Assembly: GCA_003558065.1 (NCBI GenBank)
Contig: PWMU01000034.1
Location: 1-64,000, forward strand
Length of the DNA: 64,000 nt
Direction of reading: 5' to 3'
Source of the DNA: Opitutia bacterium
GTDB taxonomy: Bacteria > Verrucomicrobiota > Verrucomicrobiia > Opitutales > T3Sed10-336
Shown: piece after piece, positions 3,726 to 24,960 of the stretch
How positions within the stretch are numbered: the stretch's first letter is position 1
Layout of the letters: the number at the start of each line of letters is the position of its first letter
Program-made: the position numbers and the translations under genes
The notes under the pieces: model-generated
Told to the model about the DNA's origin: nothing
Databases searched by the model: none
What the model saw: only the letters and a program-made list of their open reading frames with translations

Positions 3726-3745
3726 TATCCGTTCAGCCGCAGCGC

Positions 3746-5839
3746 TCAGCGGATACGCTCGGGTTCGATCCATTGGGCATCGTCGTCGTCGATGTCGAAC
3801 GGCAGCTTGTAGACCTCACCTTCCCGCGTTCCGAAGTAAAATCGGGAAGGCGACAGCTCGCGCCCATGGCCGTCCGCCCAGAAGGCGTAAAAACCGGGAT
3901 GGGCGTTTCTGGGGCGCCGCGGGTAGGTGTGGTTGTATTCGGAATCCTCGGTCAGATCCGCGACCTTTTCCCAGGACCGCCCCTGGTCCGACGATAGCCA
4001 CATCGCCATCTCGCCGCCGGTGTTGTATTCCTGGGGGCCGGTTTCGGTGGACCCGATGACTCGCCACTCATTCTCCCCTTCCAAATAAATCGAGGCGAAG
4101 TCGTAGTTATTGTCGGCGGAGGTCACGGGATGTGACACCCATTCCGACCCGGTCCAGCGGGCCACGGTAAACATGCGGGGATCGTTTTCCGGTCCCGACT
4201 CCCACCCGGGCGTGGTGAGGTACAGGATGACCGGGTGCCCTTCGTCGGTGTATTGAATATCCTTGAGGTAGATTATGTGGCCCCGGGACTCGTATTCGAT
4301 CGCGAGGGCGGGATTATCCGGTTCATCGAGCGGCAGTTCCAGCTGTTCGCCTTCAACGTTCCGCCAGGTTTTCCCGCCGTCGGCCGTTTCCATGTAGTAC
4401 AGGTTGGTGCGGTAGTTCAGCCCCCGGCCGAGCGGACTGCCTTCGGGTGGATGATAGTTGAAAACGGTGCCGATCGTCGACCCTTTGGGCCAGGATACCT
4501 GGTAATGGCCGTGGGCAATATTCGAAAGCCGTTTGGGCTCCGTCCAATCCTCGCCGTCCTCGCTGCTCATGACATAGAGAAACCTTCCGCCGGCGTACCG
4601 GGTGTGAAGGAAAACAAACCCGAATTCATCCAGGTACCACGGCTGGGAATAGGAATAGTTGGTGGTCTTGGTGTTTTGGAAAGCGTCGATGGAATAAGGT
4701 TCCTCCGACCGGTGAATGTAGGACGGACGGCCCGTACCGTGGGCGTTGGAAAAAATCCAGATGTAACCGTCCCGGTCGATGGCCATCGTCGGGTTGTCGT
4801 GGGCGTCGGTGGTGTGCTTGTCGAGAAGGATGCGGGGACGGGCGACTTTGCCGGTCTCATGGTCGTAGACACTCACCATGTGAAGGAGCCGACGGCGGTC
4901 CTTGCGGGTGCCTCCGTAGGTGAAGAACGTTTTATTGACCTCCTCCGCGTACACGGCGATCGGGATGTGCTGCTGGGGGTAGGTTCCTAGGCCGCCGGAA
5001 TACTTGTGAAGACCGTCGTCCCTGCGCTGGTTCAGGTACCAGATTCCGCGAAAGCCGTCAGTGGCGGGGATTTCGCCCACCGCGAACGGAAGCTCGGGTT
5101 CGCCATTGCCCATCATGTGCCCGGGAATATCGGAGCGCATGCGCTCCTCGAGATCCGCGGCCTCAAAACGGAGAACCCGGTCCGTCGCCGCCGGTTCACG
5201 GCCGGAAACCACCTGCCTTAGTTCGTCCTGCGACAAGGCCCTCCGGTAAACCCGGACATCTTCCAACCGCCCGTCGACCACATTCATGAGCGGCCCGGTC
5301 GAGCCGATAAACAGGAGGTCCTGGCGCGCGGGCATCCTTCCCTCCGCGGCGGTTGAATCCACTCTTTCGCCGTTGACATACAACGTGATTGTCTCCCCGT
5401 CATAGGTTCCGGCATAGTGGGTCCAGGTACCCGCTTCCGGCGGTTCGGTCGAGGCATGGCGGTAACGTCCTTCTTCGTGCTCCACCAGCATCCGGACATG
5501 GTCATTGAAAAGGTAGAGTGTGAACAGGTCGCCACGGGCTCCCCGGTTGAGGAACGTTTGGATTCCCGCCGCCTCGTCGAGTTTGACCCAAACCGAAACG
5601 GTAACGGAATCCAGGTCGGCATCGTCCTCCAGATCGACCCGGACATGGGTCTTCACCCCGTCAAATGACGCGCCGTCGCCAGCCGGCGCAGCCGGCACGT
5701 CGGCCTGAACCGCGCAGGCGCAGGAAAGGCCGGCGAGCAGCAGCGAGAAGAACAGGCGTCCCGGCCAGGATTTTGCGGCCTCCCGGGCATTGAATCGGTT
5801 GTTGGATGTCGTCGGATTTACACTTGGGCACATAATCAT
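3746..5839 (-). CDS. Secreted LamG - BNR_4 propeller protein, candidate polysaccharide lyase
   Basis: 697 residues. A hydrophobic signal (WPGRLFFSLLLAGLSCACAV, about 28-47) leads to a LamG domain (about 55-210) and then a BNR_4 domain from GFRGIWYLNQ (about 255) to the C-terminus. Marks of the family are the KYSGGLGTY and NKTFFTYGGT strands, the HDNP motif, GHYQVSWPKGSTIGT, and the terminal WADG element. BNR_4 (PF15892) proteins are beta-propellers; to my knowledge characterised relatives include ulvan lyases of families PL24/PL25, which use histidines, but the substrate here cannot be read from sequence. Third gene of module A. Its LamG resembles that of the downstream cytochrome protein closely (both have a FTLYLF...RMLVE stretch), so the two probably bind the same glycan. 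An in-frame ATG six bases inside is an alternative start. Confidence 0.75.
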   Translation of the reverse strand: MIMCPSVNPTTSNNRFNAREAAKSWPGRLFFSLLLAGLSCACAVQADVPAAPAGDGASFDGVKTHVRVDLEDDADLDSVTVSVWVKLDEAAGIQTFLNRGARGDLFTLYLFNDHVRMLVEHEEGRYRHASTEPPEAGTWTHYAGTYDGETITLYVNGERVDSTAAEGRMPARQDLLFIGSTGPLMNVVDGRLEDVRVYRRALSQDELRQVVSGREPAATDRVLRFEAADLEERMRSDIPGHMMGNGEPELPFAVGEIPATDGFRGIWYLNQRRDDGLHKYSGGLGTYPQQHIPIAVYAEEVNKTFFTYGGTRKDRRRLLHMVSVYDHETGKVARPRILLDKHTTDAHDNPTMAIDRDGYIWIFSNAHGTGRPSYIHRSEEPYSIDAFQNTKTTNYSYSQPWYLDEFGFVFLHTRYAGGRFLYVMSSEDGEDWTEPKRLSNIAHGHYQVSWPKGSTIGTVFNYHPPEGSPLGRGLNYRTNLYYMETADGGKTWRNVEGEQLELPLDEPDNPALAIEYESRGHIIYLKDIQYTDEGHPVILYLTTPGWESGPENDPRMFTVARWTGSEWVSHPVTSADNNYDFASIYLEGENEWRVIGSTETGPQEYNTGGEMAMWLSSDQGRSWEKVADLTEDSEYNHTYPRRPRNAHPGFYAFWADGHGRELSPSRFYFGTREGEVYKLPFDIDDDDAQWIEPERIR

Positions 5840-5946: not shown

Positions 5947-8781
5947 TTAATCCGTGGCCCCAATCGTCCGCACACGGTAGAAACGACGGTCGGAATCAGC
6001 GTCGGAATCGTCCACCTCCATGACGCTCCCGTCCCCGGAAACCGTGGTCAAGATCTGCCAATCGGCGGCTTCGAGAGTGTCTGTATACTCGACCTGGTAG
6101 TCGTAGCCTAGGTGGGTATCGAACGCCACCGAGAATCCGTCCGCCGAAGACGTCAACTCACGAATAACGGTGAGCGGCAGGTTGTCCGGCCCGTAGAATC
6201 GCTGCCCGAGCAACCTGACATTGTCGATATCCACGTACTCGCCGTCGGGCCCGCTGGCCGCGTTCACGCGTAGCGCGCTGATACTGCCTGTATCCGGATC
6301 AAAGGTTCTTCGGAAGGGAAGCTTTTCAGCGAGCAGCTCCCCATCGACGAACAGATCGAACGTGTTCGAATAGTGACCGGACAGGTAATTGACCATGCGG
6401 TAGTGATGCCACTCCTCGCCGGGCTCGAAAAGACCGATCCAGTTATCCCCGTCATAGTAGGTGAAATGGTCGGCTACGGTCCCCCAGCCGACAAAGCTGT
6501 ACTGTGTGCCGCTTCCCACGTCCGGAGCGAGGGTGAGATCCACCGTTCGCTCCGCCGTCGTGGAGACCCGGACGTCCATCTCCACCACGATGATCCCGGT
6601 ACTCCGACCGGGAAAGTAAAGCCAATCGCGCTGGGTTCCGCCCATCTGGTGGCGCCGCAGGACCTTATTGTAGGGCGCCTCCACTTCGACGATTTCCGAG
6701 GGATCGCTGGAATGCGGTTGCCATCCGGCGATGCGATCCTCGAATTCCTGGAGGTCTCCCAGCGGGTAATAGGTATCGCTGTCGAAACCCCGTGAATCGT
6801 AGATCGTAAAGGGCCCGCGAAGCACCGGCGTGCCCTGCACTGTAAAGAAGCCCGTAGTAGTCGCCTCCTCATTCGCTGCTTCGATCACGATATTATTTCC
6901 CGGATCGATTCCTTGATAAGAAACGAACCAGTGATTCTCGTCGCCCTCGATAGTCATACCAGCCGAAACATCCTGACCGTCGCGTAAGAGCTGGATTCCG
7001 GACTCCGGGGTGCCCACGGGGCCGGTGACTTCGAACTCCAGCGTTGCACCTTCGGACACCGGTTCGTCGATATCGGGTGACGTGATGCCGATGGCCGGAT
7101 ACGCCCGCCAGACCGGTGCGGTTCCGTATTCGTAGATGCCGAAGTTATCGACATCGTTAGTACCGTGAATGAGACGGGCGCCCACTTCACCGGCCTCCAG
7201 GAAACCGGAACTCGCTCCCGAAGAAATCGTGTAACTCATCTGGAAGTTCGGAGCCGCCAGGTAGTTCTGGGAGGCAAAGGCGCTGAGGGTTACCTCGATC
7301 TCGTTGCCGACGTTACGAACATCGAGCCGCATGTGGCACCATTCATCGAAGGCGATTCCCGACGGAGCACTCTCGTCGAACTGCAAATCTCCCGAGTCGC
7401 CGCCGGCCTCGATTCCGGAAGCCGTCCAGACTCGCATCCGCGAGCGATCGGTCAGCATCACGCGGATCGACTCATCGGTCTCCCGGTTGGCGCGCACGAT
7501 GAATCCCAGACTGCGGCTGCCCCGGTGATCGAACGTGATGGAAAAATCCTGGAAAGTCTGGGTTCCGGCCTCGCCGTCCGTATCGTAAATAAAGTTGGTA
7601 TTTCCCGAGTTCTGGGCGAACCCGCCGCGGCCGATGCCGCGGTCCCACTCCTCGTTAAACGACATCGTGCCGTCAGCAACGGTGAAGTTGTCCATCAGAT
7701 CCGATTCATCCTCGAACTCGACCACGTCGATCAAAGGCTGCGGATCGGGAGGCGTTTCGGAACGAAACTCAACGGTCCGGGTGGTGGTCGCGCCGGCGGC
7801 GGTGACTTCGATCTCGGCCGTATAATCGGTGTCCGGTTCCAGGCCGGAATAATGAACCCGCCGGTGTTCCGGATCCCCGCTGATCTCCAGGTCCCCGGAA
7901 ATATCGGTACCGTTGAGGACGACCGATACGTCAGCCTCGTCGATGGCATCGGTCGAAACGGCATCGAAATTAAAGCCGTCGTCCGCGCGGTGAAACTGGG
8001 CGTTCGGCTGGGGAAGCAGGTTGGTCAATTCCGGATACGGAAGAGACTCGGGGGCGGTCCCGTACTCGTAAACGGCGAAATTGTCGATACGGGTCCCGAC
8101 ACCGATCATGCGAAATCCGATCTCCCCGTCGTCGAGATAAGGCGAGGAATCCTCTTCGCTGAAGGTGTAGGTGTGCTCGGCAACCAGAGTGGATTCATCA
8201 AAACGCGTCTGCGAATCGTAGCCGCGGAAAACGATCTCCACCTGGTCGCCGACGTTCCGCACACTGAGACGAAGGTGCGACCAGTCGTTGCGGAGCGCCG
8301 TATCGGTTTCATCATACACCAGTTCCCCCGAGTCGTGCTCGGCGACCTGCGCCCCGTGCCAAACCCGGAAGCGATTCCGGTTCGTCAAGAGCGTCCGGAT
8401 ACTGTCGTTGCGGTTGGTATGACCGCGCACAATAAACCCGACGCTGTGGGTGGCCTGGTGGTCGACCGCGATGGTCACGTCCCCGAAGGTCTGCGTGCCG
8501 GCCGATCCGTCGGTATCGTAAACGAAATTGGTGGTCTCACCGATTTCCGGGGGAATCTCCACGAATCCTCCCCGGCCGATGCCACCGTCGTCTTCGTCGG
8601 TGTGCACCACGCTCAGCCCCGGAAAACCGGTCGTCAGGGTGAAGTTGTTGGTGAAATCGCTTTCAGTCGCAAATTCGTTTACGGGAACCAGCTCGTTGCC
8701 GAGCGCGGTCGCGGCAAAACCGGACAGCGCGATAATCGCCGCAACCAGGCGGCATTTGGAAGTCATTGGAGTGCGTTTCAT
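5947..8781 (-). CDS. Large secreted multidomain lectin-like protein with C-terminal Verrucomicrobia-type module
   Basis: 944 residues with a signal peptide ending near ATALGNE. Two similar lectin-like domains (about 30-250 and 345-560) share GIGRGGF, FIYDTDG.AGTQTF and SLGFIVR strands. Ig-like repeats follow each of them (about 255-345 and 565-660). A third domain beginning FTIYDSRGFDSDTYYPLGDL (about 665-860) is the YDSxGF domain found again in two other proteins of this locus. The C-terminus (DYQVEYTDTLEAADWQIL ... RFYRVRTI) matches the end of the paralog at 15480-18356. No catalytic signature was recognised; the likely role is glycan binding or scaffolding at the cell surface. A second ATG lies five codons in. 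Codon use and GC content resemble the neighbours. Confidence 0.7.
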   Translation of the reverse strand: MKRTPMTSKCRLVAAIIALSGFAATALGNELVPVNEFATESDFTNNFTLTTGFPGLSVVHTDEDDGGIGRGGFVEIPPEIGETTNFVYDTDGSAGTQTFGDVTIAVDHQATHSVGFIVRGHTNRNDSIRTLLTNRNRFRVWHGAQVAEHDSGELVYDETDTALRNDWSHLRLSVRNVGDQVEIVFRGYDSQTRFDESTLVAEHTYTFSEEDSSPYLDDGEIGFRMIGVGTRIDNFAVYEYGTAPESLPYPELTNLLPQPNAQFHRADDGFNFDAVSTDAIDEADVSVVLNGTDISGDLEISGDPEHRRVHYSGLEPDTDYTAEIEVTAAGATTTRTVEFRSETPPDPQPLIDVVEFEDESDLMDNFTVADGTMSFNEEWDRGIGRGGFAQNSGNTNFIYDTDGEAGTQTFQDFSITFDHRGSRSLGFIVRANRETDESIRVMLTDRSRMRVWTASGIEAGGDSGDLQFDESAPSGIAFDEWCHMRLDVRNVGNEIEVTLSAFASQNYLAAPNFQMSYTISSGASSGFLEAGEVGARLIHGTNDVDNFGIYEYGTAPVWRAYPAIGITSPDIDEPVSEGATLEFEVTGPVGTPESGIQLLRDGQDVSAGMTIEGDENHWFVSYQGIDPGNNIVIEAANEEATTTGFFTVQGTPVLRGPFTIYDSRGFDSDTYYPLGDLQEFEDRIAGWQPHSSDPSEIVEVEAPYNKVLRRHQMGGTQRDWLYFPGRSTGIIVVEMDVRVSTTAERTVDLTLAPDVGSGTQYSFVGWGTVADHFTYYDGDNWIGLFEPGEEWHHYRMVNYLSGHYSNTFDLFVDGELLAEKLPFRRTFDPDTGSISALRVNAASGPDGEYVDIDNVRLLGQRFYGPDNLPLTVIRELTSSADGFSVAFDTHLGYDYQVEYTDTLEAADWQILTTVSGDGSVMEVDDSDADSDRRFYRVRTIGATD

Positions 8782-8878: not shown

Positions 8879-9628
8879 TCAAAGCTCATCCAGCTCCTCG
8901 TAGAGTCTCAAGAGGATTCCGCCCGAGACACCGGAGCTGATATTGCTGGTGAGCGGGCCGGGTTCGGTCCACCGGACCGAACCGTCTCCAAACAAACGGT
9001 TAAAGCCACGATCCTGGTGAACGGGACCGATCCTCGCGCCGGAAATTCCGCCACCCTGAAAATTTTTAACGCCTACAAAATCGCTGTAAATAACCGCTCG
9101 CGTCACCTCGATCGGCCCCTTCGTCGGTCTCTCTATGTAGTCCGTCAGTCTCCATTCGGCAGGGTTGTCGGTGGTCGACAGGTAGCGCGCGGCGAATGAG
9201 GCCCGTTCCCGGCGTCCATCCGAGGTAATGTTGTTCGCGGAGTGGTAGCTCAAGGCTTCCTGCGGATCCACGTCGCGGCTGGGACAGAAGAAGACCTCGT
9301 CCGTGTCGACGTACCCCTGATCGAGCAGGTGACCCAGATTGGCGGGCGTGTTGCCCCGCCACAGCCAGTAGGTCGTAAAGGCGGAGGCGCTGGTACTGAC
9401 CGGCGGAAGGTGATCTTCGTGGTCGGAGGCATACAGATGCACGCCCACCCCGACCTGGCGGAGATTGCTCTGACAGACGGACTTGCGCGCCGATTCACGC
9501 ACCGCGGACACAACCGGAATAAGGATTGCCGCCAGTATCCCGATGATAGCGATCACCGTGAGGAGTTCGATCAGCGTAAAGGCGGAATTTTGCTTCCGCT
9601 TGAAAAGGGCAGATTGAGGTCTTGTCAT
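8879..9628 (-). CDS. Pseudopilin-like protein with type IV prepilin N-terminus (module A)
   Basis: 249 residues. The N-terminus has a basic leader and then [20 protein letters not shown], the class III signal of type IV pilins and type II secretion pseudopilins. The residue before the cleaved phenylalanine is alanine rather than glycine. The rest is a secreted globular domain with [20 protein letters not shown], typical of DUF1559-like pseudopilins, and a late H-x10-DG motif ([17 protein letters not shown]). The gene is first in module A and faces the LacI gene across 61 bp that contain a palindrome. GAGGAG lies two bases before the ATG. Its closest relative in the window is the module B pseudopilin at 18398-19165, including the C-terminal YEELD ending. 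Confidence 0.85.
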
Positions 9629-10817: not shown

Positions 10818-12764
10818 CTACCGCTCGTTCATGGGGATCGGCTCGGCGTACTCCCCTTCCATGTCGTAGGAAAGCTTCCAGTACCGGGTTCCATCGGAGT
10901 TCCCGAAATAGAGCCGGGACTCGCTGTACCTCTCCGCGTGTCCGTCCGCCCAGAAGGAGTAGAAGGGATCGCGGGCCGGCTTCGGACGGCGCGAAAAACC
11001 GTGATTGAACTCGCTGTCGCGGGTAATATCGCGCTCCTTGGACCACGTTTCGCCCCGGTCCCGGCTCACCCATAAGGCGATCTCACCACCGGTTCCCCAA
11101 CGCTGCGGCCCCGCTTCGGTGGGACCGATAATACGCCAGACCTCTTCCTCGATGTACAGCGCGCCGAAGTCGTAGTTGTGGGTCGACGCGGTCACCACGT
11201 GGCTCACCCATTCGTCGCCGGTCCACCGGGTGACGACCCATTCCCGCGGGTCGTTTTCAGGTCCCGGCCGGTGGCGGCGCGCCCGAACGTAGAGAAGCAC
11301 GGGATGGCCGTCGCCATCGAAATTGAGATCGACCGTGTACATGAGGCGCTCCTGCGACGCGTAGTCGATCACCCGCTCCGCATTGTCCTCCGTTTCCAGG
11401 GGCAGATCGACGGGAGTGCCGTCCGCCATAGTCCAGGTTTCGCCGAAATCGGTGGTCTGAACGTAATAAACATCGGTGCGCCGGTCCACGCTCCCCGGAT
11501 GCCGGTTGAAGAACGTCCCAATGGTGTTTCCCTGCTGCGCGCTCACCTGGTAGTGGCCGCGAATTCCCGCAAGTTTCCGGTCCTCGCTCCATTCCCTTCC
11601 GTCCTCGCTGGTCGCCCAGTACAATTCCCGTCCCCGGGTGTACTTGGTAAACAAGTGGAAGTACCCTTCGCCCTCGACGTATTTCGGCTGCGGATACGTA
11701 AATTCGGCCTCCCGGATGAACTCGAACTCCGACACATCGTAAGGCCGGACGGACCGGTAAATCGATCCGTCCCGGCGCCGGGAGCGGCCGGCGACAAACA
11801 CCCAGACGTGGCCGTCGCCATCGATCATCAGGCTCGGGTTGTCGTGCGCGTCCACCACTCCGCGACGGTCGTGGACCACCGTGGGCCTGGGCACCCGGTG
11901 ATTCTCGTGATCGTAATACGAGGCCATGGCCTGCAGGTGGCGCCGTCCCCGAACGGAGCCGCCGTAGACGAAAAAGGTTTTGTCCACTTCCGGGGCGTAC
12001 ACGGCCATGGGACGATGATTGGCGGTGTAGGTTCCCAGACCGCCGGAATATTTGGCGCCGTGTTCGGAGAACTGACGCAGCGTGTACCAGATCCCCCGAT
12101 ACCCGTCGGTCTGGTAGGACGGCTGTCCCGGAAGCGGTCCCGGCTTGGAAATTTCCTCCGGAGAATCGAACGCCAGCGGGACCAAATTCGTCGGGAGGTG
12201 CTCCTCCGAGGTGGCGATGAAATACGCGTCGATGACCACCATGCCGCTGGTCGCCTCCAGACTCAGGTCCACCGGCCCCGCGGGCAACGGCAGGTGGAAC
12301 AGGACATTCGGCCGCTGACCGGTGCTGCCGGGGCCCCATTCGCGGTGGTGAAGCTCCTCGCCGTTCTTCCGGATCACCAGGCCCGCCCCGCGCCGGGAAA
12401 TACCCGCAATGTGAAGACCGAGGACCTTCGGCTCGGAAAAGTCGCTCCGGATCACGAGCGGCTCGTGCAGGGTTCCGCTGCTGAAAAGCCGCCAACTGAT
12501 CCGGCTCGCCGCTTCCCTCGCCTCCTCCTCTGATTTCCCCCGCAGGTCGAGGGTCCAGGTTTCGGGCGGCTCCCCGGTGGTCACAATACGCGGGTGGAGA
12601 GTCCAGAGGTCGGCGCCGTAGGCCGCGGGAGCGGCCATTGCGAACAAAAGCACCAGGAACGCCACCACCGGACTCAGCCAGGCGCCCGCCGGGTAGCGGG
12701 TTCCGCCGCCAGCGGAGAGGCGGCGGCAACGGAAAAACTGCGTGAAGTGATGAATAGCAGTCAT
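10818..12764 (-). CDS. Secreted BNR_4 propeller protein, candidate polysaccharide lyase
   Basis: 648 residues. After a signal segment (LSPVVAFLVLLFAMAAPAAY, about 30-50) comes a distinct N-terminal beta domain (about 52-195) and a BNR_4 propeller from GYRGIWYTLRQ (about 222). Family motifs include KYSGGLGTYTANH, DKTFFVYGGS, HDNPSLMIDGDGHVWVF, GHYQVSAQQGNTIGTFFNRH, HNYDFGALYI and WADG. The DUF-like N-terminal domain contains HHREWGPG and may bind carbohydrate; it is unlike the LamG of the module A protein. Fourth and last gene of module B. A LacI-type inverted repeat lies 129 bp upstream (12893), so the gene may have its own promoter. Lyase activity is inferred only from the family. Confidence 0.75.
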   Translation of the reverse strand: MTAIHHFTQFFRCRRLSAGGGTRYPAGAWLSPVVAFLVLLFAMAAPAAYGADLWTLHPRIVTTGEPPETWTLDLRGKSEEEAREAASRISWRLFSSGTLHEPLVIRSDFSEPKVLGLHIAGISRRGAGLVIRKNGEELHHREWGPGSTGQRPNVLFHLPLPAGPVDLSLEATSGMVVIDAYFIATSEEHLPTNLVPLAFDSPEEISKPGPLPGQPSYQTDGYRGIWYTLRQFSEHGAKYSGGLGTYTANHRPMAVYAPEVDKTFFVYGGSVRGRRHLQAMASYYDHENHRVPRPTVVHDRRGVVDAHDNPSLMIDGDGHVWVFVAGRSRRRDGSIYRSVRPYDVSEFEFIREAEFTYPQPKYVEGEGYFHLFTKYTRGRELYWATSEDGREWSEDRKLAGIRGHYQVSAQQGNTIGTFFNRHPGSVDRRTDVYYVQTTDFGETWTMADGTPVDLPLETEDNAERVIDYASQERLMYTVDLNFDGDGHPVLLYVRARRHRPGPENDPREWVVTRWTGDEWVSHVVTASTHNYDFGALYIEEEVWRIIGPTEAGPQRWGTGGEIALWVSRDRGETWSKERDITRDSEFNHGFSRRPKPARDPFYSFWADGHAERYSESRLYFGNSDGTRYWKLSYDMEGEYAEPIPMNER

Positions 12765-12939: not shown

Positions 12940-15360
12940 TCAAGGAAGGGAGGTCGAACGGCGGGGGCGTTCGATTGAAATCGGTTCGGCCTCCTCGCCG
13001 TCCATGTGATACGGCAGCTTGTAGAGCTGCTCGCCTTCGGAGTCGGTAAAGTAGAGGCGGGAAATGGAAAAATCCGAGGAATCGCCGTCCGCCCACATGG
13101 CGTAAAACGGATCGACCGGGTTGTGCGGCCGGCGCACGTAGCTGTGGTTGAACGGACTCTCCCGCGTAATTGCCTTCTTGAAACTCCATGTGTATCCATT
13201 ATCCAACGACTCCCAAAGGCCGACCTCCCCGCCGGTGTGGTAGGATTGCGGCCCTTCGAGCGCCGGCCCGATGACGGTCCACCGGTCGCCGTCGATGTAG
13301 AGACTGCCCATGTCATAGTTGTGATCGGAGCGGGCGATTTCGACAGTCTTCCATTCCTGACCGGTCCAACGTATAATTTCCCAGATACGCGGGTCATTCT
13401 GCGGCCCCGGTTCGTGCCCGCCCGAAGTGACCGCAAGCACCACGGGATACCCGTCGTCGTCGAAGAGCAGTTTGGTGATGTAGGCGAGCCGCTCCTCGGC
13501 CTCGTAGTCGACCGCGAGCGCCGGGTTGTCGCGGTGCTCCAGCGGGGTCGAAACCACCTCGCCGCCGATCGTCTTCCAGGTTTCGAAGTCGTCGGTCTCG
13601 ACGTAGTAAATGTTCGTGCGGGTATCGACTCCGCGCGGATGATAATTGAAGGCGGTTCCGACGCGCTTTTTCTCGGGGTCGATCCGGCTGACCTGGTAAT
13701 GTCCCCCGAACCCGGCGAGTTTCGGCAGGTCGTCGGCGGGTTCGTCGGTCCAGTCGCGTCCGTCGACACTCGTTTCCCAGTAAAGCTCGCGGCCCCGGGT
13801 GTAGAGCGTCTGCAGGTGCAGGAATCCTTTGCCGGGAACATACCAGACCTGGGAGTAGGTCGTCTCACGGTCCACGATCTGCTCGAACTCCCGGACGGAG
13901 TAAGGCTCGGTGGACCGGAAAATCTGTCCCGGCCGCCTCCGCCCGCGGCCGGCGACAAATACCCAGACGTGTCCGTCGCCGTCGATGGTCAGGCTCGGAT
14001 TGTCATGCGGATCGTCCACACCGCGCTGGTCCCGGATAATGACCGGCCGCGACACCACGTGACGGGCGTGATCGTAGTAGGCCCCCATGATCAGCAGGTA
14101 CCGGTTCTCCGGACCGGTTGTCCCGCCGTAAACGAAAAAGGTCTTGTCCACCTCCGGCGCATACACCGCCATCGGCGTCAGGGTGTGGCTGAAGCAGAAT
14201 GCCAGGCCGCCCGCGTATTTGTCGCCGTACTCCCCGGAGAGCTGCCCCAGGGTGAACCAGATTCCCCGGTACCCGTCGACCGCATCGACAAACGTGTAAA
14301 CGTTGTGCTCGCTCGTGGTGGTCCCTCGCTCATTGGTGGCCGTAATGGTCACCTGATACGTCTTATTCTCCTCAAGGCCGGATGCATCGACGAGGGTCAG
14401 ATCGCGTTTGGTCGGAGTCCCGGAGATCTCGAACCGGCCGGTGGCCTCCCTCCCGTTCACGCGAACGTTGATGCTCGACTCGTCGACCGGGACATCGCTG
14501 CTGACCTGGAACCGCACGAATTCGTCGGGCTGCACGATTCCGCTGGCGGACGACGGCGAGAGCATCGAAATGGTCGGAGGCGTCGGTTCGGCGTGGATGC
14601 GGATATTCGTGATGTCCGCATAATCCCCCTCTTCCCCCCGGACGGCGCCAATGCGCAACCGTCCGAACGCGGTTCCCGGGCTGAAACGATTGCGCCACGG
14701 CAGGTCACTGGCTATCAGCTCGCCGTTGACCCGCAGATCAAAGGTGTTGGCATCGAGATGATTCACCATCTCGTAACTGTTCCAATCGTCATCGATGGGT
14801 GTCAGCTCGTTGTAATCCCCGTCGAAGTAGGAAAGGTAGCCGGGATGATACCCCCACATCAAAATGGATCCCTGATGGGCCGGCGCCGTCATTCCTGGAC
14901 GAAGCAAGAAGAGGTCAAGGGTCCGTGATTCGGTTGTGGAAACCCGGGCGTCAAACGCGATCACCAGGCGAGTGCTCGACACTGGCGGGAAATCGATCAG
15001 GTCCGCATCCCGCTGCGCGCTGGCGATCTGGTACCGGCGCAGCGCCCGTTCAGCGGGCCCGTCATCCACCTCCACAATCTCCCCGGGCCGTGCCCGGCCG
15101 GACGCAGGGGTCCAGTTTACCCGGCCGTCGGCAACCGATTGAAGATCGCCGAGCGGATAGAGTTCGTCGTTCGAAAACCCTTTGCTGTCATAGAGGGTCC
15201 AAAGGTCCGACCGCTCGGGCTCCGATTCGCCACCCTCCAATCCGGCGGCCCCGAGCAGGAGGATCAGGCACGGCAGGACGTTTCCAACGAAGCGCCCGCA
15301 AAACAAAAACAGGCGGATGAACCGTTTCCGGAGGAGGGCTTTTTCAAGAGAATCAGTCAT
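12940..15360 (-). CDS. Secreted YDSxGF domain - Ig - BNR_4 protein, candidate polysaccharide lyase
   Basis: About 806 residues from the ATG at 15360, chosen because it precedes a basic N-terminus and hydrophobic signal (LFLFCGRFVGNVLPCLILLL); longer frames run back into the preceding gene. Order: signal (about 12-40), a YDSxGF domain starting WTLYDSKGFSNDELYPLGDL (about 50-265), one Ig-like repeat (about 268-360), then BNR_4 from GYRGIWFTLGQ (about 367) to the end with HDNPSLTIDGDGHVWVF, GHYQVSRIDPEKKRVGTAF, HNYDMGSLYIDGD and MWADGD. The YDSxGF domain also occurs in both large lectin-like proteins of this locus, which ties all of them to one substrate. Third gene of module B, 119 bp after the multidomain gene. 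Confidence 0.75.
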   Translation of the reverse strand: MTDSLEKALLRKRFIRLFLFCGRFVGNVLPCLILLLGAAGLEGGESEPERSDLWTLYDSKGFSNDELYPLGDLQSVADGRVNWTPASGRARPGEIVEVDDGPAERALRRYQIASAQRDADLIDFPPVSSTRLVIAFDARVSTTESRTLDLFLLRPGMTAPAHQGSILMWGYHPGYLSYFDGDYNELTPIDDDWNSYEMVNHLDANTFDLRVNGELIASDLPWRNRFSPGTAFGRLRIGAVRGEEGDYADITNIRIHAEPTPPTISMLSPSSASGIVQPDEFVRFQVSSDVPVDESSINVRVNGREATGRFEISGTPTKRDLTLVDASGLEENKTYQVTITATNERGTTTSEHNVYTFVDAVDGYRGIWFTLGQLSGEYGDKYAGGLAFCFSHTLTPMAVYAPEVDKTFFVYGGTTGPENRYLLIMGAYYDHARHVVSRPVIIRDQRGVDDPHDNPSLTIDGDGHVWVFVAGRGRRRPGQIFRSTEPYSVREFEQIVDRETTYSQVWYVPGKGFLHLQTLYTRGRELYWETSVDGRDWTDEPADDLPKLAGFGGHYQVSRIDPEKKRVGTAFNYHPRGVDTRTNIYYVETDDFETWKTIGGEVVSTPLEHRDNPALAVDYEAEERLAYITKLLFDDDGYPVVLAVTSGGHEPGPQNDPRIWEIIRWTGQEWKTVEIARSDHNYDMGSLYIDGDRWTVIGPALEGPQSYHTGGEVGLWESLDNGYTWSFKKAITRESPFNHSYVRRPHNPVDPFYAMWADGDSSDFSISRLYFTDSEGEQLYKLPYHMDGEEAEPISIERPRRSTSLP

Positions 15361-15479
15361 ACGGATTTGGAATTTTGAGTTTTTAAAGCAATTCACCGGC
15401 ACACCGAATCGGATCAACGCCGGCTTCGGGCCGCCCTGGAAATACGTATTCGACGAAGCCTCGGACACCCGGGCGAGGC

Positions 15480-18356
15480 TTATTGCGAGGTGAGAATTCG
15501 GACGCGATAGAACCGGCGCGTGACTCCGGGATTCGGGTCGGTAATGACCTCCACACTGTCGTTCCCCGATACCGTCGCCAGGATTGTCCAATCGTCGGGC
15601 TCCAGGGTATCCGAGTACTCCACCACATAATCGGATCCTCCTTCGGTCGCCAGGTCAAAGGTCACCTCGGCTCCCGAATGCCTCAGGTTGCGTATCACGT
15701 CCAACGGTGCGGCGGGCGGAGGAAGCTCCGAGGGCGCCGCCGTAACAACCAGGTTATCCACGTCGGCGAAATCGCCCGGAACCCCGCGAATTGTGGCCAA
15801 GCGAAGGCGGCCGAGCGCCGTCCCCTCCGGAAATACGTTTCGCCACGTCAGATCGGCGCCGATCAATTCCCCGTCGACCTTCAGGTCGAAGCGGTTCCTG
15901 TCCAGGTAGTGGATCACGTCATACCGATGCCACTCCTCATCCAATTCGTAGATCTCCCGATAGGAGCCGTCATAATAACTCAGTTGCTCGGGAATATGTC
16001 CCCAGATCAGAAGCGACGCCTGGTTCCCCCCTGAGGTTTGCCCCGGTCGCAGCAGAAACACATCCAGGGTCCGGTCGTGAACCCACGAAACCCGCGCGTC
16101 AAAACTGATTGTCAGGATACCGCTCGATACGGGAGGAAAATCCAAATAATCGACATCTCCTCCCTCGTTTCTCTGGGTCTTGCGGAGGATCTTATTGTAG
16201 GGTTCTTCGACGACGGTAACCTCCGGCGGCTGATCACCCGGAATCCATAACCAGTCGTCTCCCTCGACCGGGCCCAACGGGCCGGGAGGATAGACCGCAT
16301 CATCCTCAAAGCCGCCCGAATCAAACAACGTCACCGGCTCTTCGGTCACCAGGAAGGTCCAACTGATCACCGTGGTTCCGGCCGAATTGCTCGCGCTCAC
16401 CTCCGCCAGGTAACGTTCGCCGGCACTCAGATCGCCCGCGTACGTGACGACCAGATGACTCTCGGAGCCGTCCGCTGCGAGACCCGCTGAAACATCGTCT
16501 CCGTTGATGAGAAGGGAAATATCGTCCGGCGAGATAGGGATGTGGGAGGTGACTTCAAACGACAAGCCCTCCTGCGGACGGACCACCGCGTGATCAAACG
16601 GCCGGAGATTGATGATTTCAGGCGGCGGAAAGGCGTCCTGATCCTCAGGGGCACCGGTAATCACGAGATTGTCGATATGGGCGTATTCAAAAACCGGGCC
16701 GCTCCCGTGACTGTGCAACCGAAACCGCCCGATCGGCGTCCCCGGTTCGACATTGCGCCACGGAAGCATTTCTCCGACCGGGTCACCGTTGACCAAAAGA
16801 TCGAAGCGGCCGGCAGCCGGGCCGCTCAGGTAATTGATGACCTCGTAATGGTGCCACTCTTCGTCGATATCCATCAACGGGATCCAATCGCTCCCGTCGT
16901 AATACGACAGTTTTCCCTCCTCCACGCCCCAGCCGAGGAGATGCGTCATCTGTCCGGACTCCATCGGAGAAAAGCTTACATCAAACATTCTGCCTTCCGT
17001 CGTTGAAACCCGCGCGTCGAATTCAACGCCGAGGGTTCCCGAAGCGATCAAAGGAAAGTGCAGCCAGTCGGCGCGACCGGACCCCATGTTCATACGTTCG
17101 AGCACCTTCCCCTGGGGCGGTCCGATCTCCACGATCTCAGACGGTTCCGATCCGTGGGGAAACCAGGTGGCGAGCCCGTGCGTCACTTCACCCAGAGGCC
17201 CCTGCGGGTACAACGTATCACTGGCGAAACCTTCGGAGTCGTAAAGGACGAACGGGCCGCTCGCGGTCGAGAACGTTCGTGCAATAACAACCGTTCCGGC
17301 ATCGTTGGTCGCGGTGATTTCGAACGTGTAGGCCTCGTCGGGCTCAAGCCCGTCGTAGATCACCGAGCGATAGGTGGGCTCGCCCGAAATCTGAAGTTGA
17401 TCGGAGACGTCCGCGGCGTTGACAACCAGGGTGATCGCGCTGTCATCCACCGGCTCGGAATCGATCACGTCAAACCGGATCCCTTCCTCCGCCGGATGAA
17501 TGGCGTAGTCGATCGGAACCACGTTTTCAACGGCAGGCGGAAGCAGGGGAACTCCTTGGTCAATGGACACGGAATCGAGGTCGAACAACAAAATGTCTTC
17601 ATTCGAACCGGCCTGCACGCTGAAATGCAGCCAGGTATGACTGGTGGCCGTCGCCTCGGACGAGCGAAAGCGGTGGAGGTCCTGACTCTGGAAGGCGGCG
17701 CCGCTCGTCTCATCCAGGATGGAAACGGTGTAACTGAGGTCGTCCGGATAGACCGTGACGGCAAACGAATAAACGTGGCCGGCCAGCATCGGGACGCCCG
17801 TGTCCAGATTGTTGTTCAGATTATTGGCTCCGGTACCGTCCAGGTTATCGTAGACCCAGAAGGTCTGCCCACTCCCGACTCCGCTGATGGGGGAACCGGA
17901 AGCGAATATCTGCCAACTGGTATTGCCATCCTGGCGGTTCGTCAGCCGGGGAGCCCCCCGGCCGAAAAATGAAACGCTGTCGCTGGAACCGGTGAAGGTT
18001 TCCGAGAACTCCTCCTGGGAAAGCGGAACCCGGAATTTCCAGCGAATGGTGTGGACCTGTTCGATCTCGACCCCGGCGCCCGATTCGTATTGGCGCGCGA
18101 CATTCCGTGTGGACGGAGTGGCCCCCGGCGCCACATCCATGCGAAGGTACGGAGTGCCTCCGTCGATCGGATCCTCGGTAAGGATCTCCCCCTCCATGGT
18201 TGAGGCGTGCTGCCAGGCGTCGACCCATCCGTCGCCCGCTTCGCCCGGGAAGACGAAGTCGTCGAAATTCGACTCGATCGCTCCGTGCGCAACCGTCGAC
18301 GCGACCAGCATCCCAGCCGTCCCGCCCAGGATCCGGATTCTTTTTGCTGTATTCAT
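15480..18356 (-). CDS. Large secreted multidomain lectin-like protein (module B)
   Basis: About 958 residues from the ATG at 18356, which starts the signal peptide MNTAKRIRILGGTAGMLVAS. Order: an N-terminal lectin-like jelly-roll (about 28-285), Ig-like repeat, YDSxGF domain one (FVLYDSEGFASDTLYPQGPL), Ig-like repeat, YDSxGF domain two (VTLFDSGGFEDDAVYPPGPL), and a C-terminal module (DYVVEYSDTLEPDDWTIL ... RRFYRVRIL). No catalytic signature was recognised. The domain set and C-terminus make it the counterpart of the 5947-8781 protein, but its N-terminal domain is different and it has two YDSxGF copies rather than one. It lies 41 bp after the module B pseudopilin and is probably cotranscribed with it. 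Confidence 0.7.
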   Translation of the reverse strand: MNTAKRIRILGGTAGMLVASTVAHGAIESNFDDFVFPGEAGDGWVDAWQHASTMEGEILTEDPIDGGTPYLRMDVAPGATPSTRNVARQYESGAGVEIEQVHTIRWKFRVPLSQEEFSETFTGSSDSVSFFGRGAPRLTNRQDGNTSWQIFASGSPISGVGSGQTFWVYDNLDGTGANNLNNNLDTGVPMLAGHVYSFAVTVYPDDLSYTVSILDETSGAAFQSQDLHRFRSSEATATSHTWLHFSVQAGSNEDILLFDLDSVSIDQGVPLLPPAVENVVPIDYAIHPAEEGIRFDVIDSEPVDDSAITLVVNAADVSDQLQISGEPTYRSVIYDGLEPDEAYTFEITATNDAGTVVIARTFSTASGPFVLYDSEGFASDTLYPQGPLGEVTHGLATWFPHGSEPSEIVEIGPPQGKVLERMNMGSGRADWLHFPLIASGTLGVEFDARVSTTEGRMFDVSFSPMESGQMTHLLGWGVEEGKLSYYDGSDWIPLMDIDEEWHHYEVINYLSGPAAGRFDLLVNGDPVGEMLPWRNVEPGTPIGRFRLHSHGSGPVFEYAHIDNLVITGAPEDQDAFPPPEIINLRPFDHAVVRPQEGLSFEVTSHIPISPDDISLLINGDDVSAGLAADGSESHLVVTYAGDLSAGERYLAEVSASNSAGTTVISWTFLVTEEPVTLFDSGGFEDDAVYPPGPLGPVEGDDWLWIPGDQPPEVTVVEEPYNKILRKTQRNEGGDVDYLDFPPVSSGILTISFDARVSWVHDRTLDVFLLRPGQTSGGNQASLLIWGHIPEQLSYYDGSYREIYELDEEWHRYDVIHYLDRNRFDLKVDGELIGADLTWRNVFPEGTALGRLRLATIRGVPGDFADVDNLVVTAAPSELPPPAAPLDVIRNLRHSGAEVTFDLATEGGSDYVVEYSDTLEPDDWTILATVSGNDSVEVITDPNPGVTRRFYRVRILTSQ

Positions 18357-18397: not shown

Positions 18398-19165
18398 TCA
18401 GGGAAGTTGATCCAGCTCCTCGTAAAACTGCATCAGCCGGGCCGGACTGGGATTGGCGCTGGAAATCCGGCTCGTCATCGGCCCCGGCGCGGTCCACCTG
18501 ACCGATCCGTCGCCAAAGAGGCGGTTGAATCCGCTCCCCTTGTGGGTTTCGTTGATGACCGACCCGCCGGAAATTCCACCGCCGGACCAGTCCTTCACTC
18601 CGACAAAATCGCTGTAGATGACGGCGTGCACGACTTCGATCTCCCCGCTCCTCGGCCGGTCAATATAACCGGTCAGCTTCCAATCGGCCGGACTGGTGCC
18701 CGAAATGGTCCGCGCGGGAAACGAGGACCGCTCACGCCGGCCGTTCGCGGTGATATTGATGGGCGAATGATACCCGATCGCTTCCCGGGCGTCGATTGCG
18801 CGCCCCGGACAGAAGAAAATCTCATCAGCATCCACATAGCCGTGCTCCAGGAGCAGCCCGAGGTTTCGGGCCTGCCCGCCGTACCACATCCAGTAAGTGG
18901 AAAACGGGGAGGCCGTGCGAAAAACAGGCGGAAGGTCTTCGTCATTTTCCGCCGCGTACATGTGCACCCCGATCCCCACCTGGCGCAAGTTGCTCGCGCA
19001 AACCGACCTTCGCGCAGAATCGCGCACCGCCCCGACGACCGGAATGAGGATCGCCGCGAGAATCCCGATAATCGCGATCACTGTCAGTAACTCGATCAGA
19101 GTAAAGCCGCAACCGGAAGTCCGTCGGGCGCTGGGGGCTCTTGAACCCGGGAGGAGATTGTTCAT
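18398..19165 (-). CDS. Pseudopilin-like protein with type IV prepilin N-terminus (module B)
   Basis: 255 residues. The prepilin motif is [20 protein letters not shown], with the canonical glycine before the cleavage site. The globular part has [20 protein letters not shown], a GYHSPINIT stretch and an H-x10-DG motif ([17 protein letters not shown]), and ends YEELDQL. It is clearly paralogous to the 8879-9628 protein along its length. First gene of module B; upstream lies the stop of the second LacI gene. Such proteins may be minor pseudopilins of a type II-like secretion system or surface sugar-binding subunits; no assembly genes lie beside it. Confidence 0.85.
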
Positions 19166-22257: not shown

Positions 22258-24960
22258 CTATTGCAATAACCGCCGCAGCTCCTCCTCGGTCCAAAGGTCC
22301 TCCCTGTCGCCGCTTTCCTCGCGTATCCGGCGCACGTCGGAGGCGTCGACCAGGTTCTCGTCGTGCCAGCGGACCCGGATATAACTGAGAATGGCGGCAA
22401 TCTCGTCGTCGTCCATCCACTCGAAGGGCGTCATGATGCCCCGGTTTCCCTCCTTGCCGTGCAGGACGATCCGGACCAGCGCTTCGGGCGAGCCATCGGC
22501 CCAATCCGAATCGCGCATGGCCGGGGCGACGCCGCCGGACTGGTGGCAGGTGTAGCAGTTGGTTTCGAAGGCCGTTCTGCCCGCCTCGAACCATACCGGC
22601 AGCTCCCCCTCGACGTCCTCTTCAAGCCATCGGTCGACCTCCTCCTCCATCACGGCCTCGGTCCTGACCCGCCTCGCGGGTTCGTCGCCTTCCCTTAACA
22701 CATGGATCGTGTGGTAAACGGCGTTCTCCTCCTCGTGCCCGTCGGCGAACCTGAGGTCGTAGGCGACCATCTGCTGCATGACCGGCATGATGTCCGGGAT
22801 TTCGATAAAGAGGGTTTTGGCATCGCCGGAAAGCGACGCCCCGGTCACTTCGACCGGATCCCGTCCCTCCTGTCCGGGATTGCGCACCGACATTTCGGGA
22901 GACCCGTAGGCGTGCGAATAGATGTATTCCCACCGCTCGACCTCGTAGCGATCAAGCTCGTCCACGACAGCACGGTCAAGGGGCTCTGAAAACGTGATCG
23001 AAACTCCTTCCGGCGTCACCCCGAACCCGGTGGGCAGGTAATCCGCCCCGCCGGCGTAACGCACGCGGTCGAGATTGCCGTCGTGCCGGGCCGAGGTTCC
23101 CCATCCCCGCAAGCCCGCCACGTAAAGCTGGCCGTCCCCGGGATTCACCCGGGCGCGGATCAATCCGGAAGTGAACGCGAGGGGAAACCGCACGACACCG
23201 CCCTGCATGACGTCACCGATTTCCTGGGTCAACACCGCGAACAGAGCCTGACGCCCGTAGGAGCCTAGAATCCAGTTTCCGTATTGAGGACCCCAGCGAT
23301 CGTCGCCGGCAAAGTGCATCGCCCCGGAAGAATTATTGACCCCGTGCGGCACCCAGCACACCGGGGGCTCGAACTCCCCGAAGGGCAGATCCTCTCCCCC
23401 GTGCGGACGATACCCGTAGAACTTCCCCCGTTGGAGCCGGTCGATCCGTTCGGTGGGAACCAGGTTTCCCTGCTGGTCGGCCGAAAGGACGGTGTCGTCG
23501 GGCCCGATGCCGAGGGAGTTGGCTCCGCGAATGCCGTTGGCAAAGACCTCGCGCTCATTCCCGTCGGGCGAAACACGGATCAGCGCCCCGTGCTGCGGGA
23601 CGTCGCCCGGTACGCGGTTGCCGTTCTTAAAGAAGTAAAAGTAGCCGGCGGAATCGACTTCCAGGGTCAGGGTGTGAGCCCGCGGATGAAGCGGCCCGTC
23701 GTTGTTGAAATTTTCGTAGAAATCCGCCTCCCCGTTCCCGTTGAGGTCGTGGAGCCGCGTCAACTGGCCGCGCTCGGTGACGTAAATGCCACCGTCCACG
23801 ACCGCGACGCCCATGGCGTAGAACAGCCCGGAGGCAAACCGCCGCCAGGTGACGTTCTCCAGGGAGTCGTCGATGCCGGAGACGATCCAGACGTCCCCGT
23901 TCCAGGTGGAGAGGACGGCGCGGGTCCCGCACTCGAAGAAGTCCAGGCCGGCCGGCCGCATCCAGCTTCCCCAGGGGTTGTCTTCGGGCAGCGGAATCCG
24001 GTCGACGACGTAACCGGTGTCACCTTCGGCCACCGTTCCCTTGACCGCGACCTCCTCGTTCCAGCGAGCCGGGCCTCCGCGGGTCATTTTTGAAAAATCC
24101 GGCAGCTCCCGCTCCGCAATCGACCCGGGGACATTCCGGTAAGCCTCGGAACCGGCCGAACTCATTTCAAAGATCACGATCCGAAACCCGCGTGTGTCGT
24201 CCGAAGGCGGCAGATGCAGTTCGATACGATCGCCGTTCGTCGTCAATCGCGCCTCCCCGGGAGCACCGACCAGCCGCACCGCCACCGCCCCTTCGCCGGT
24301 ATCCAGCACGAGGCCATGCGCGTCGGAGCGGGCGAGCGACCAGGCCTCGCGTTTCTCGCCAAGGTAAGCCCGCATCTCCTCATCCACCCCCTCAATCCGC
24401 AGCGTCCGCATGAAAGCGAGGGTTTCGCCTTCGTGTACGGCTTCAGGCAACTCCAACACCTTCGTTTCGCCCACGCTGTATTCCAGCACCACCTGGTTCC
24501 CGTGCCGGTAGTACCCCCGGTAATGCGCCCAGTCGCGGGGGAGATTCCCGTAGCGGCCGTCCCGGGGACCGTCGAAACGCCCGTCCTTCGCCCAACCCGC
24601 GAGTTCGGAAGCCCCCCAGACTTGCCTCCCCTCGACAGCGGCGGTGTCGGACCCCTTGTAACTGGTACGGTCGGTACGCGAGATGTCGACCCAGCCGTCC
24701 ACCGTGGCGGCGGCAAATCGGAGCAGGTCGGTGTCGAAGATCAGGGCCGCATCATGATCCAGGCGAATGGCCAGCCCCTTGCGCACCAGATTATTTTCGG
24801 GCCAGTCCGTCCTGACCATATGGCCGATAACCGGTCCGTAGTCCATCGCCTCGTAGGAACCGGGCTTCGCCTCCTCGGCGGTCGCTTTCAAAGTGGACAA
24901 TAACAGGATTCCGATAAATGGAATCCAACAGAAGGGATAATGAATGCCGCGTCTCTCCAT
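22258..24960 (-). CDS. Secreted DUF6797 - dehydrogenase-like propeller - cytochrome c protein
   Basis: 900 residues. A signal peptide (FCWIPFIGILLLSTLKATAE) leads directly to the DUF6797-type domain (MDYGPVIGHMVRTDWPENN, about 40-270), then the propeller (about 320-680, with HDLNGNGEADFYENFN and GIRGANSLGIGPDD), an Ig-like strand region, and a C-terminal c-type cytochrome (heme motif CYTCH near 803; IMTPFEWMDDDEIAAILSYI). It is a close paralog of the 426-3725 protein but lacks the LamG domain. Predicted to oxidise a sugar or sugar derivative outside the cytoplasmic membrane and pass electrons to a respiratory cytochrome; that is inferred from the family. A weak LacI-type half-palindrome lies about 70 bp upstream. 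Confidence 0.8.
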   Translation of the reverse strand: MERRGIHYPFCWIPFIGILLLSTLKATAEEAKPGSYEAMDYGPVIGHMVRTDWPENNLVRKGLAIRLDHDAALIFDTDLLRFAAATVDGWVDISRTDRTSYKGSDTAAVEGRQVWGASELAGWAKDGRFDGPRDGRYGNLPRDWAHYRGYYRHGNQVVLEYSVGETKVLELPEAVHEGETLAFMRTLRIEGVDEEMRAYLGEKREAWSLARSDAHGLVLDTGEGAVAVRLVGAPGEARLTTNGDRIELHLPPSDDTRGFRIVIFEMSSAGSEAYRNVPGSIAERELPDFSKMTRGGPARWNEEVAVKGTVAEGDTGYVVDRIPLPEDNPWGSWMRPAGLDFFECGTRAVLSTWNGDVWIVSGIDDSLENVTWRRFASGLFYAMGVAVVDGGIYVTERGQLTRLHDLNGNGEADFYENFNNDGPLHPRAHTLTLEVDSAGYFYFFKNGNRVPGDVPQHGALIRVSPDGNEREVFANGIRGANSLGIGPDDTVLSADQQGNLVPTERIDRLQRGKFYGYRPHGGEDLPFGEFEPPVCWVPHGVNNSSGAMHFAGDDRWGPQYGNWILGSYGRQALFAVLTQEIGDVMQGGVVRFPLAFTSGLIRARVNPGDGQLYVAGLRGWGTSARHDGNLDRVRYAGGADYLPTGFGVTPEGVSITFSEPLDRAVVDELDRYEVERWEYIYSHAYGSPEMSVRNPGQEGRDPVEVTGASLSGDAKTLFIEIPDIMPVMQQMVAYDLRFADGHEEENAVYHTIHVLREGDEPARRVRTEAVMEEEVDRWLEEDVEGELPVWFEAGRTAFETNCYTCHQSGGVAPAMRDSDWADGSPEALVRIVLHGKEGNRGIMTPFEWMDDDEIAAILSYIRVRWHDENLVDASDVRRIREESGDREDLWTEEELRRLLQ

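What the first reader, a model, noticed from the sequence alone, without database searches (positions are those of the whole stretch)
12940..18356. Recurrent about 200-residue YDSxGF domain, possibly an uncatalogued carbohydrate-binding module
A domain starting YDSxGFxxDxxYPxGxL and later showing DARVST, a YYDG-like turn and FDLxVxGExI..LPWRN occurs four times in three proteins (once in 5947-8781, once in 12940-15360, twice in 15480-18356). It is always next to an Ig-like repeat, and once it is fused to a BNR_4 propeller. I do not recognise it as a named Pfam domain. The pairing with a candidate lyase suggests it targets the same glycan.
Basis: partly seen in the sequence, partly recalled or inferred. 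Interest (0 to 1): 0.65.

Follow-up and report, generated by a model that had tools for sequence, protein, structure and literature searches.

The report
Unnamed sugar-binding-type domain beside lyase propellers
Four copies of an unlisted, rare protein module with the fold of sugar-binding lectins sit in three secreted proteins of a Verrucomicrobiota bacterium, next to predicted enzymes that cut rhamnose-glucuronate polysaccharides; it looks like a new family of a familiar kind of module, not a new kind of thing.

Summary
Four copies (38-46% identical to the first copy) lie in three secreted proteins at the stated coordinates, far above chance, and they are the only copies in this genome. No Pfam, NCBIfam or PDB sequence matches the domain. 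It is rare: clear members were found in nine genomes, all Verrucomicrobiota except one planctomycete. AlphaFold2 (pLDDT 93) gives a jelly-roll (concanavalin A-like) beta-sandwich. The closest solved structure is the beta-sandwich inside the two-activity pectin enzyme BT_1020 (Z 21), then the sandwiches of propeller sialidases and calreticulin. In seven genomes the domain is fused to a BNR_4 propeller; in the other two it lies near a BNR_4 gene or is fused to a phosphodiester glycosidase. The propeller of 12940-15360 folds like PL25 ulvan lyase and PL42/GH145 (Z 30-33) and keeps the catalytic His and Tyr, but not the PL25 Arg. Best reading: a new sequence family of carbohydrate-binding-module-like domains that tether lyases, and two enzyme-free companions, to a rhamnose-glucuronate glycan. 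Binding is not shown, and a comparable orphan family (X122) failed binding tests. Ordinary in kind, new as a family.

The parts
6193..6807 (-). YDSxGF domain, copy A (in secreted protein 5947-8781, no catalytic domain found)
14581..15198 (-). YDSxGF domain, copy B (N-terminal part of the BNR_4 protein 12940-15360); structure predicted
16638..17249 (-). YDSxGF domain, copy C1 (secreted protein 15480-18356)
15726..16331 (-). YDSxGF domain, copy C2 (secreted protein 15480-18356); groups with copy B in the tree
14287..14583 (-). Ig-like domain (Big_5-like) between copy B and the propeller
   Evidence: Big_5 E 2.4e-4, just under its cut-off; limits approximate
17253..17525 (-). Ig/FN3-like repeat before copy C1
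   Evidence: FN3-like E 7e-7, fn3 E 0.001; limits approximate
16338..16604 (-). second Ig-like repeat, before copy C2
   Evidence: sequence similarity to the first, by eye; limits approximate
6814..7083 (-). Ig-like stretch before copy A
   Evidence: by eye; no significant Pfam match; limits approximate
12943..14277 (-). BNR_4 seven-bladed-propeller domain of the B protein, PL25/PL42-like; His91 and Tyr141 of this stretch align with PL25 His123 and Tyr188
10818..12764 (-). second BNR_4 protein, GH145/PL42-like
3746..5839 (-). third BNR_4 protein with N-terminal LamG; keeps the full PL25-like set His/His/Tyr/Arg in the alignment
8879..9628 (-). DUF1559-type prepilin directly upstream of protein A
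18398..19165 (-). DUF1559-type prepilin directly upstream of protein C

Best explanation
The YDSxGF domain is a secreted, non-catalytic, concanavalin A-like beta-sandwich that most likely works as a carbohydrate-binding module. Fused to the BNR_4 propeller it holds the predicted lyase on its polysaccharide. In single or tandem copy in proteins A and C it gives enzyme-free glycan-binding proteins of the same locus. Shown: the repeat, its rarity, its partners and the family relation of the propeller to PL25/PL42/GH145. Predicted with confidence: the fold. Inferred: secretion (signal-peptide-like starts), glycan binding, the ligand (a polymer with rhamnose-glucuronate linkages, from the specificity of PL25, PL42 and GH145), and the binding face (charged residues D85, R87, D97, D156 and R184 of copy B alternate with the hydrophobic residues of their strands and so should point outwards; W/Y131, W141 and W170 are possible stacking residues).
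For: Predicted fold pLDDT 93.4, pTM 0.90. Best solved match is BT_1020 residues 413-615, Z 21.0, 2.5 A over 178 residues, then propeller sialidase sandwiches Z 16, the sialic-acid-binding domain 2w68 Z 15.5, calreticulin lectin domain Z 14-15. Fused to BNR_4 in seven genomes (window, L006, L007, L008, L027/L028, L041, L043), near a BNR_4 gene in L024, fused to NAGPA in L025; a weak relative is fused to an esterase in L026. Propeller of B: PL25 Z 33.1, GH145 31-33, PL42 about 30, with the catalytic His and Tyr invariant in 14 of 14. Substrates of those families are Rha-GlcA linkages (PMC8377490; PMC13193363). Invariant polar residues on outward strand positions.
Against: No binding data. The jelly-roll fold is also common in catalytic and structural domains. 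X122 domains (Z about 14 here) have the same fold and similar company yet showed no clear binding or activity (PMC10916295). The strongest match, the BT_1020 sandwich, has no binding function known to me. In the B propeller the residue aligned with the PL25 neutralising Arg204 is Leu and that aligned with His143 is Arg, so lyase activity and its substrate are uncertain. Facing of the conserved residues was inferred from alternation, not from coordinates.
Confidence: 0.6

Rival explanations
1. Structural spacer: a beta-sandwich that, like the sandwich inside BT_1020 or the orphan X122 domains, positions or stabilises neighbouring domains and binds no glycan.
For: Best fold match is an internal sandwich of the bimodular enzyme BT_1020 (enzyme described in PMC6811678). 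X122 has the same fold and no clear binding. The conserved YDSxGF start and the D-I-D-N end look like the metal/termini region of jelly rolls (inference).
Against: It occurs in proteins A and C without any recognised catalytic neighbour, in different orders, in tandem, and fused to unrelated enzymes, as expected of a mobile binding module rather than of a fixed spacer. Polar residues on outward strand positions are invariant.
Confidence: 0.22
2. The domain is itself an enzyme: a jelly-roll lyase or hydrolase with the invariant Asp/Arg set as catalytic residues.
For: Fold matches at Z about 14 include GH16-type, GH131, PL14, glucuronan lyase and alginate lyase enzymes. Invariant D85, R94, D97 and near-invariant R87, D156, R184. 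Proteins A and C have no other recognised catalytic domain.
Against: Those Z values are tied with lectins and lower than the non-catalytic sandwiches. No GH16 ExDxE-type motif is seen on the conserved strands. The domain is often fused to complete catalytic domains.
Confidence: 0.1
3. Protein-protein or surface-attachment module that docks the proteins to a pseudopilus or the cell surface.
For: Proteins of type A/C lie directly next to a DUF1559 prepilin gene in the window (twice) and in L005, L006, L007, L024, L028 and L043.
Against: The domain occurs in loci without a prepilin gene in the stretch seen: L025, L027, L041 and L042. Prepilins in this genome also sit beside other large proteins, while the domain is confined to the window's four copies.
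Confidence: 0.08

Closest known systems
Beta-sandwich of BT_1020 (PDB 5mqr, residues 413-615), RG-II beta-L-arabinofuranosidase/Dha-hydrolase
   Same: Fold over nearly the whole domain (Z 21.0, 2.5 A, 178 residues); part of a protein with a beta-propeller glycan enzyme
   Different: 15% identity, no match by sequence profile; built into a bimodular enzyme; no known ligand (own knowledge)
Laminin_G_3 (PF13385) and other concanavalin A-like lectin/glucanase domains
   Same: Jelly-roll fold; position in secreted glycan-degrading proteins; weak profile overlap with LamG-type repeats in L035
   Different: No Pfam match even at E 10; own N-terminal YDSxGF and DARVST..RTLD motifs
Sialic-acid-binding domain of Vibrio cholerae sialidase (2w68, CBM40) and the C-terminal sandwich of Amuc_1547 (GH181)
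   Same: Sandwich appended to a sialidase-type propeller (Z 15.5 and 16.3); Amuc_1547 sandwich described as CBM-like (PMC12018670)
   Different: 11-13% identity; sialic acid ligand, not expected here
X122 domains of Teredinibacter turnerae (8q29, 8q2a)
   Same: Orphan jelly roll in large secreted glycan-related proteins, conserved inner-face patch around an Arg (PMC10916295); Z 13.7-14.2
   Different: Partners are redox domains; no sequence relation found; binding tests negative
PL25 ulvan lyase / PL42 (former GH145) propellers, for the B protein's BNR_4 domain
   Same: Seven-bladed propeller, Z 30-33; His and Tyr of the PL25 site
   Different: PL25 Arg204 position is Leu and His143 position is Arg in B; about 15% identity

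Membership tests
Carbohydrate-binding module (CAZy sense) | Discrete non-catalytic fold inside a carbohydrate-active protein | tested here: inconclusive
   Discrete confident fold, fused to BNR_4 in seven genomes and to NAGPA in one; that it is non-catalytic is inferred, not tested
Carbohydrate-binding module (CAZy sense) | Demonstrated carbohydrate binding | not testable with these tools
   No experiment available
Any CBM family catalogued in dbCAN/CAZy | Sequence profile match | not tested
   dbCAN not on hand; Pfam's models gave no match
Concanavalin A-like lectin/glucanase fold | Two-sheet jelly-roll sandwich | tested here: met
   Model and fold matches, Z 14-21 over 165-198 residues
Laminin_G_3 (PF13385) | Pfam profile above cut-off | tested here: not met
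   No match at E 10
BT_1020-type sandwich | Fold | tested here: met
   Z 21.0, over 4 units above the next entry
BT_1020-type sandwich | Sequence relation | tested here: not met
   Profile searches of PDB sequences with 4 and 18 rows did not find it
PL25 (propeller of 12940-15360) | Seven-bladed propeller fold | tested here: met
   Z 33.1, 3.2 A, 379 residues; model pLDDT 77.5
PL25 (propeller of 12940-15360) | Catalytic His123 and Tyr188 | tested here: met
   Align with H91 and Y141, invariant in 14 sequences; the residue aligned with H91 is His in 5uam and Asn in 5uas, which fixes the numbering
PL25 (propeller of 12940-15360) | Charge-neutralising Arg204 | tested here: not met
   Leu158 in B, Lys in 10818-type, Arg in 3746-type; nearby Arg163 is invariant
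PL42/GH145 | NCBIfam profile NF052497 above its cut-off | tested here: not met
   13 of 14 propellers match weakly (best E 1.3e-9); the scores listed are far below the cut-off of 700 bits

The most novel reading that the evidence does not exclude
The domain founds a new CBM family specific for an acidic rhamnose-glucuronate polysaccharide, and proteins A and C, each encoded beside its own prepilin, are pseudopilus-delivered, enzyme-free glycan-capture proteins: a Verrucomicrobiota counterpart, in function only, of SusD-like surface glycan-binding proteins.
Probability: 0.12. Interest if true: 0.6.

Novelty: new member of a known kind. Interest (0 to 1): 0.33.

Why it matters
It adds an uncatalogued, rare sequence family to the jelly-roll modules that accompany beta-propeller glycan enzymes, and it marks loci in little-studied Verrucomicrobiota and one planctomycete that probably degrade a rhamnose-uronate polysaccharide. 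If binding is shown, the enzyme-free proteins beside prepilin genes become a testable case of glycan capture in a phylum whose uptake of polysaccharides is poorly understood.

Tried and rejected
Pfam, NCBIfam and PDB sequence searches with whole proteins, four copies and 18 copies: nothing. DUF4397 (E 0.061, one copy only) rejected as chance. A hit of the B protein to 1foe (E 0.0017) covers the Ig/propeller junction and was set aside as chance. Plasmid records: no copy. Planctomycetes: 1 of 392 genomes sampled, so the L008 copy looks acquired. Weak hits in L029, L035 and L026 look like other jelly-roll/LamG-type domains and are not counted as members; L026 is the only one with a fair score. 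The primary paper on BT_1020 (10.1038/nature21725) is not in the library. The viral structure library was not searched. A profile of the C-terminal FYRV module of A and C recognises only one of the other prepilin-neighbour proteins.

Full report
OBSERVATION. The domain limits by profile are 6193-6807, 14581-15198, 15726-16331 and 16638-17249, all minus strand. The copies are 38-46% identical to the first. A leave-one-out profile scores each held-out copy at 206-216 bits against at most 9.3 bits for 1000 shuffles of it. The genome holds exactly these four (4.13 Mb, 97% complete). All three proteins begin with a signal-peptide-like stretch, judged by eye.

DISTRIBUTION. A scan of genome contigs found four loci in three further genomes, and profile searches of order, phylum and class samples added others. 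Clear members come from the window's genome, G106 (same genus; its coordinates agree with the T3Sed10_319 record of L005/L006), G072 (same family), G773 (UBA6082), G179, G399, G673, G751 and one planctomycete record (G772, L008). Of 392 planctomycete genomes sampled only that one has it, and no plasmid record does. A same-genus genome (G024) lacks it, so the locus is accessory.

ARCHITECTURE. In the window the domain is always beside an Ig-like stretch; in relatives it can instead be followed by an about 80-residue 'VEYTDTL...FYRV' module. Three layouts recur: domain plus BNR_4 propeller (window B, L006, L007, L008, L027, L028 with LamG in between, L041, L043); two-copy or one-copy proteins without a recognised enzyme (window A and C, L005, L006, L007, L024, L028, L042, L043); and domain plus phosphodiester glycosidase (L025, NAGPA E 1e-28). 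L024 has a BNR_4 gene close by.

FOLD. AlphaFold2 on 12 sequences gives pLDDT 93.4 and pTM 0.90, an all-beta sandwich. Foldseek ranks calreticulin lectin domains, Akkermansia GH181 sialidase and BT_1020 among the first. VIA-align 2 puts BT_1020 residues 413-615 clearly first (Z 21.0, 2.5 A over 178 residues), then GH181 sialidase sandwiches (Z 16.4), a sialic-acid-binding domain (15.5), galactocerebrosidase's C-terminal part (14.9), calreticulin (14-15), and beta-glucanases, GH131 and polysaccharide lyases (about 14). So the fold is not new; it is a new sequence family in a large superfamily.

POSSIBLE BINDING SITE. Over 18 sequences, G9, F10, G19, W31, D68, D85, S89, R94, D97, W141 and G190 of copy B are invariant, and D6, R57, R87, D156, G161, R171, R184 and N200 nearly so. 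On strands 80-88, 96-101, 154-159 and 180-186 the charged conserved residues alternate with hydrophobic ones, so they should face outwards, which is what a ligand-binding sheet would show.

PARTNER ENZYME. The BNR_4 domain of 12940-15360 was modelled (pLDDT 77.5) and matches PL25 ulvan lyase (Z 33.1), GH145 (31-33) and PL42 (29-30), with PL24 lower (21). The family profile also finds PL25 by sequence (E 8e-15). PL25 His123 and Tyr188 align with invariant H91 and Y141. PL25 Arg204 aligns with Leu158 in B and Lys in 10818-12764 but Arg in 3746-5839, and PL25 His143 with Arg, Arg and His respectively. The 3746-5839 protein thus has the complete PL25-like set; B may use another Arg (R163 is invariant) or have a changed activity. 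PL25, PL42 and GH145 act at rhamnose-glucuronate linkages (PMC13193363; PMC8377490), hence the proposed ligand class. That three BNR_4 proteins lie within 12 kb with two LacI-type regulators supports one dedicated degradation locus.

TREE. The domain copies of the enzymes of G000, G106, G072 and the planctomycete group together (99/96) and, with moderate support (80/71; 92/90 with a G179 copy), with copy C2 of the enzyme-free protein. This favours a shared ligand for B and C2, but weakly.

CAUTION. X122 domains, the same fold in similar company, gave no clear binding and no activity when tested (PMC10916295). For Amuc_1547 the sandwich is called CBM-like on structural grounds, with a putative binding pocket and activation of the enzyme by glycans (PMC12018670). 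So fold plus context is suggestive and no more; I put CBM-type function at 0.6.

VERDICT. It is a new family of a known kind. Interest is moderate.

Noticed in passing
window 8879-9628 and 18398-19165; L005, L006, L007, L024, L028, L043: A DUF1559-type prepilin gene lies directly beside almost every enzyme-free protein that carries the domain (window A and C, and relatives; divergent in L024, absent near L042). With 70 N_methyl genes in the genome, six of seven independent cases by chance is about 3e-8 under a rough assumption of 3500 genes.
   Followed up: partly
G000 loci L052-L071 compared with L072-L091: Across this genome prepilin genes often neighbour a large ORF ending in 'RRF(M/F/L/Y)R(L/V)xV': 14 of 91 ORFs of 250 aa or more in 20 prepilin loci end so, against 4 of 105 in 20 control stretches. 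Possible pairing of a prepilin with a C-terminal sorting signal; a profile of the window's own C-terminal module recognises only one of them.
   Followed up: partly
window 7114-7725 and 8041-8685: Protein A carries two further unnamed about 205-residue repeats (46% identical), found in only three of 19 genomes searched, always in the A-type protein.
   Followed up: partly
window about 17500-18300 and the C-terminal part of the L042 protein: Protein C starts with another unnamed beta-rich domain ('SNFDD..PGEAGDGWVDAW'); a similar stretch appears near the C-terminus of the L042 protein.
   Followed up: no
window 426-3773 and 22258-24960: Two DUF6797 plus cytochrome c proteins flank the locus, one with a LamG domain; planctomycete-type cytochrome c genes are reported near glycan genes in freshwater Verrucomicrobia (PMC5615132).
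   Followed up: no
G000, 19 places: The genome has 19 BNR_4 matches, yet the YDSxGF domain is confined to this one locus.
   Followed up: no
L008 (planctomycete record SLMF01000322.1): A full B-type protein (71% identical propeller) with a LamG gene downstream, in a single planctomycete genome: likely transfer between phyla.
   Followed up: partly
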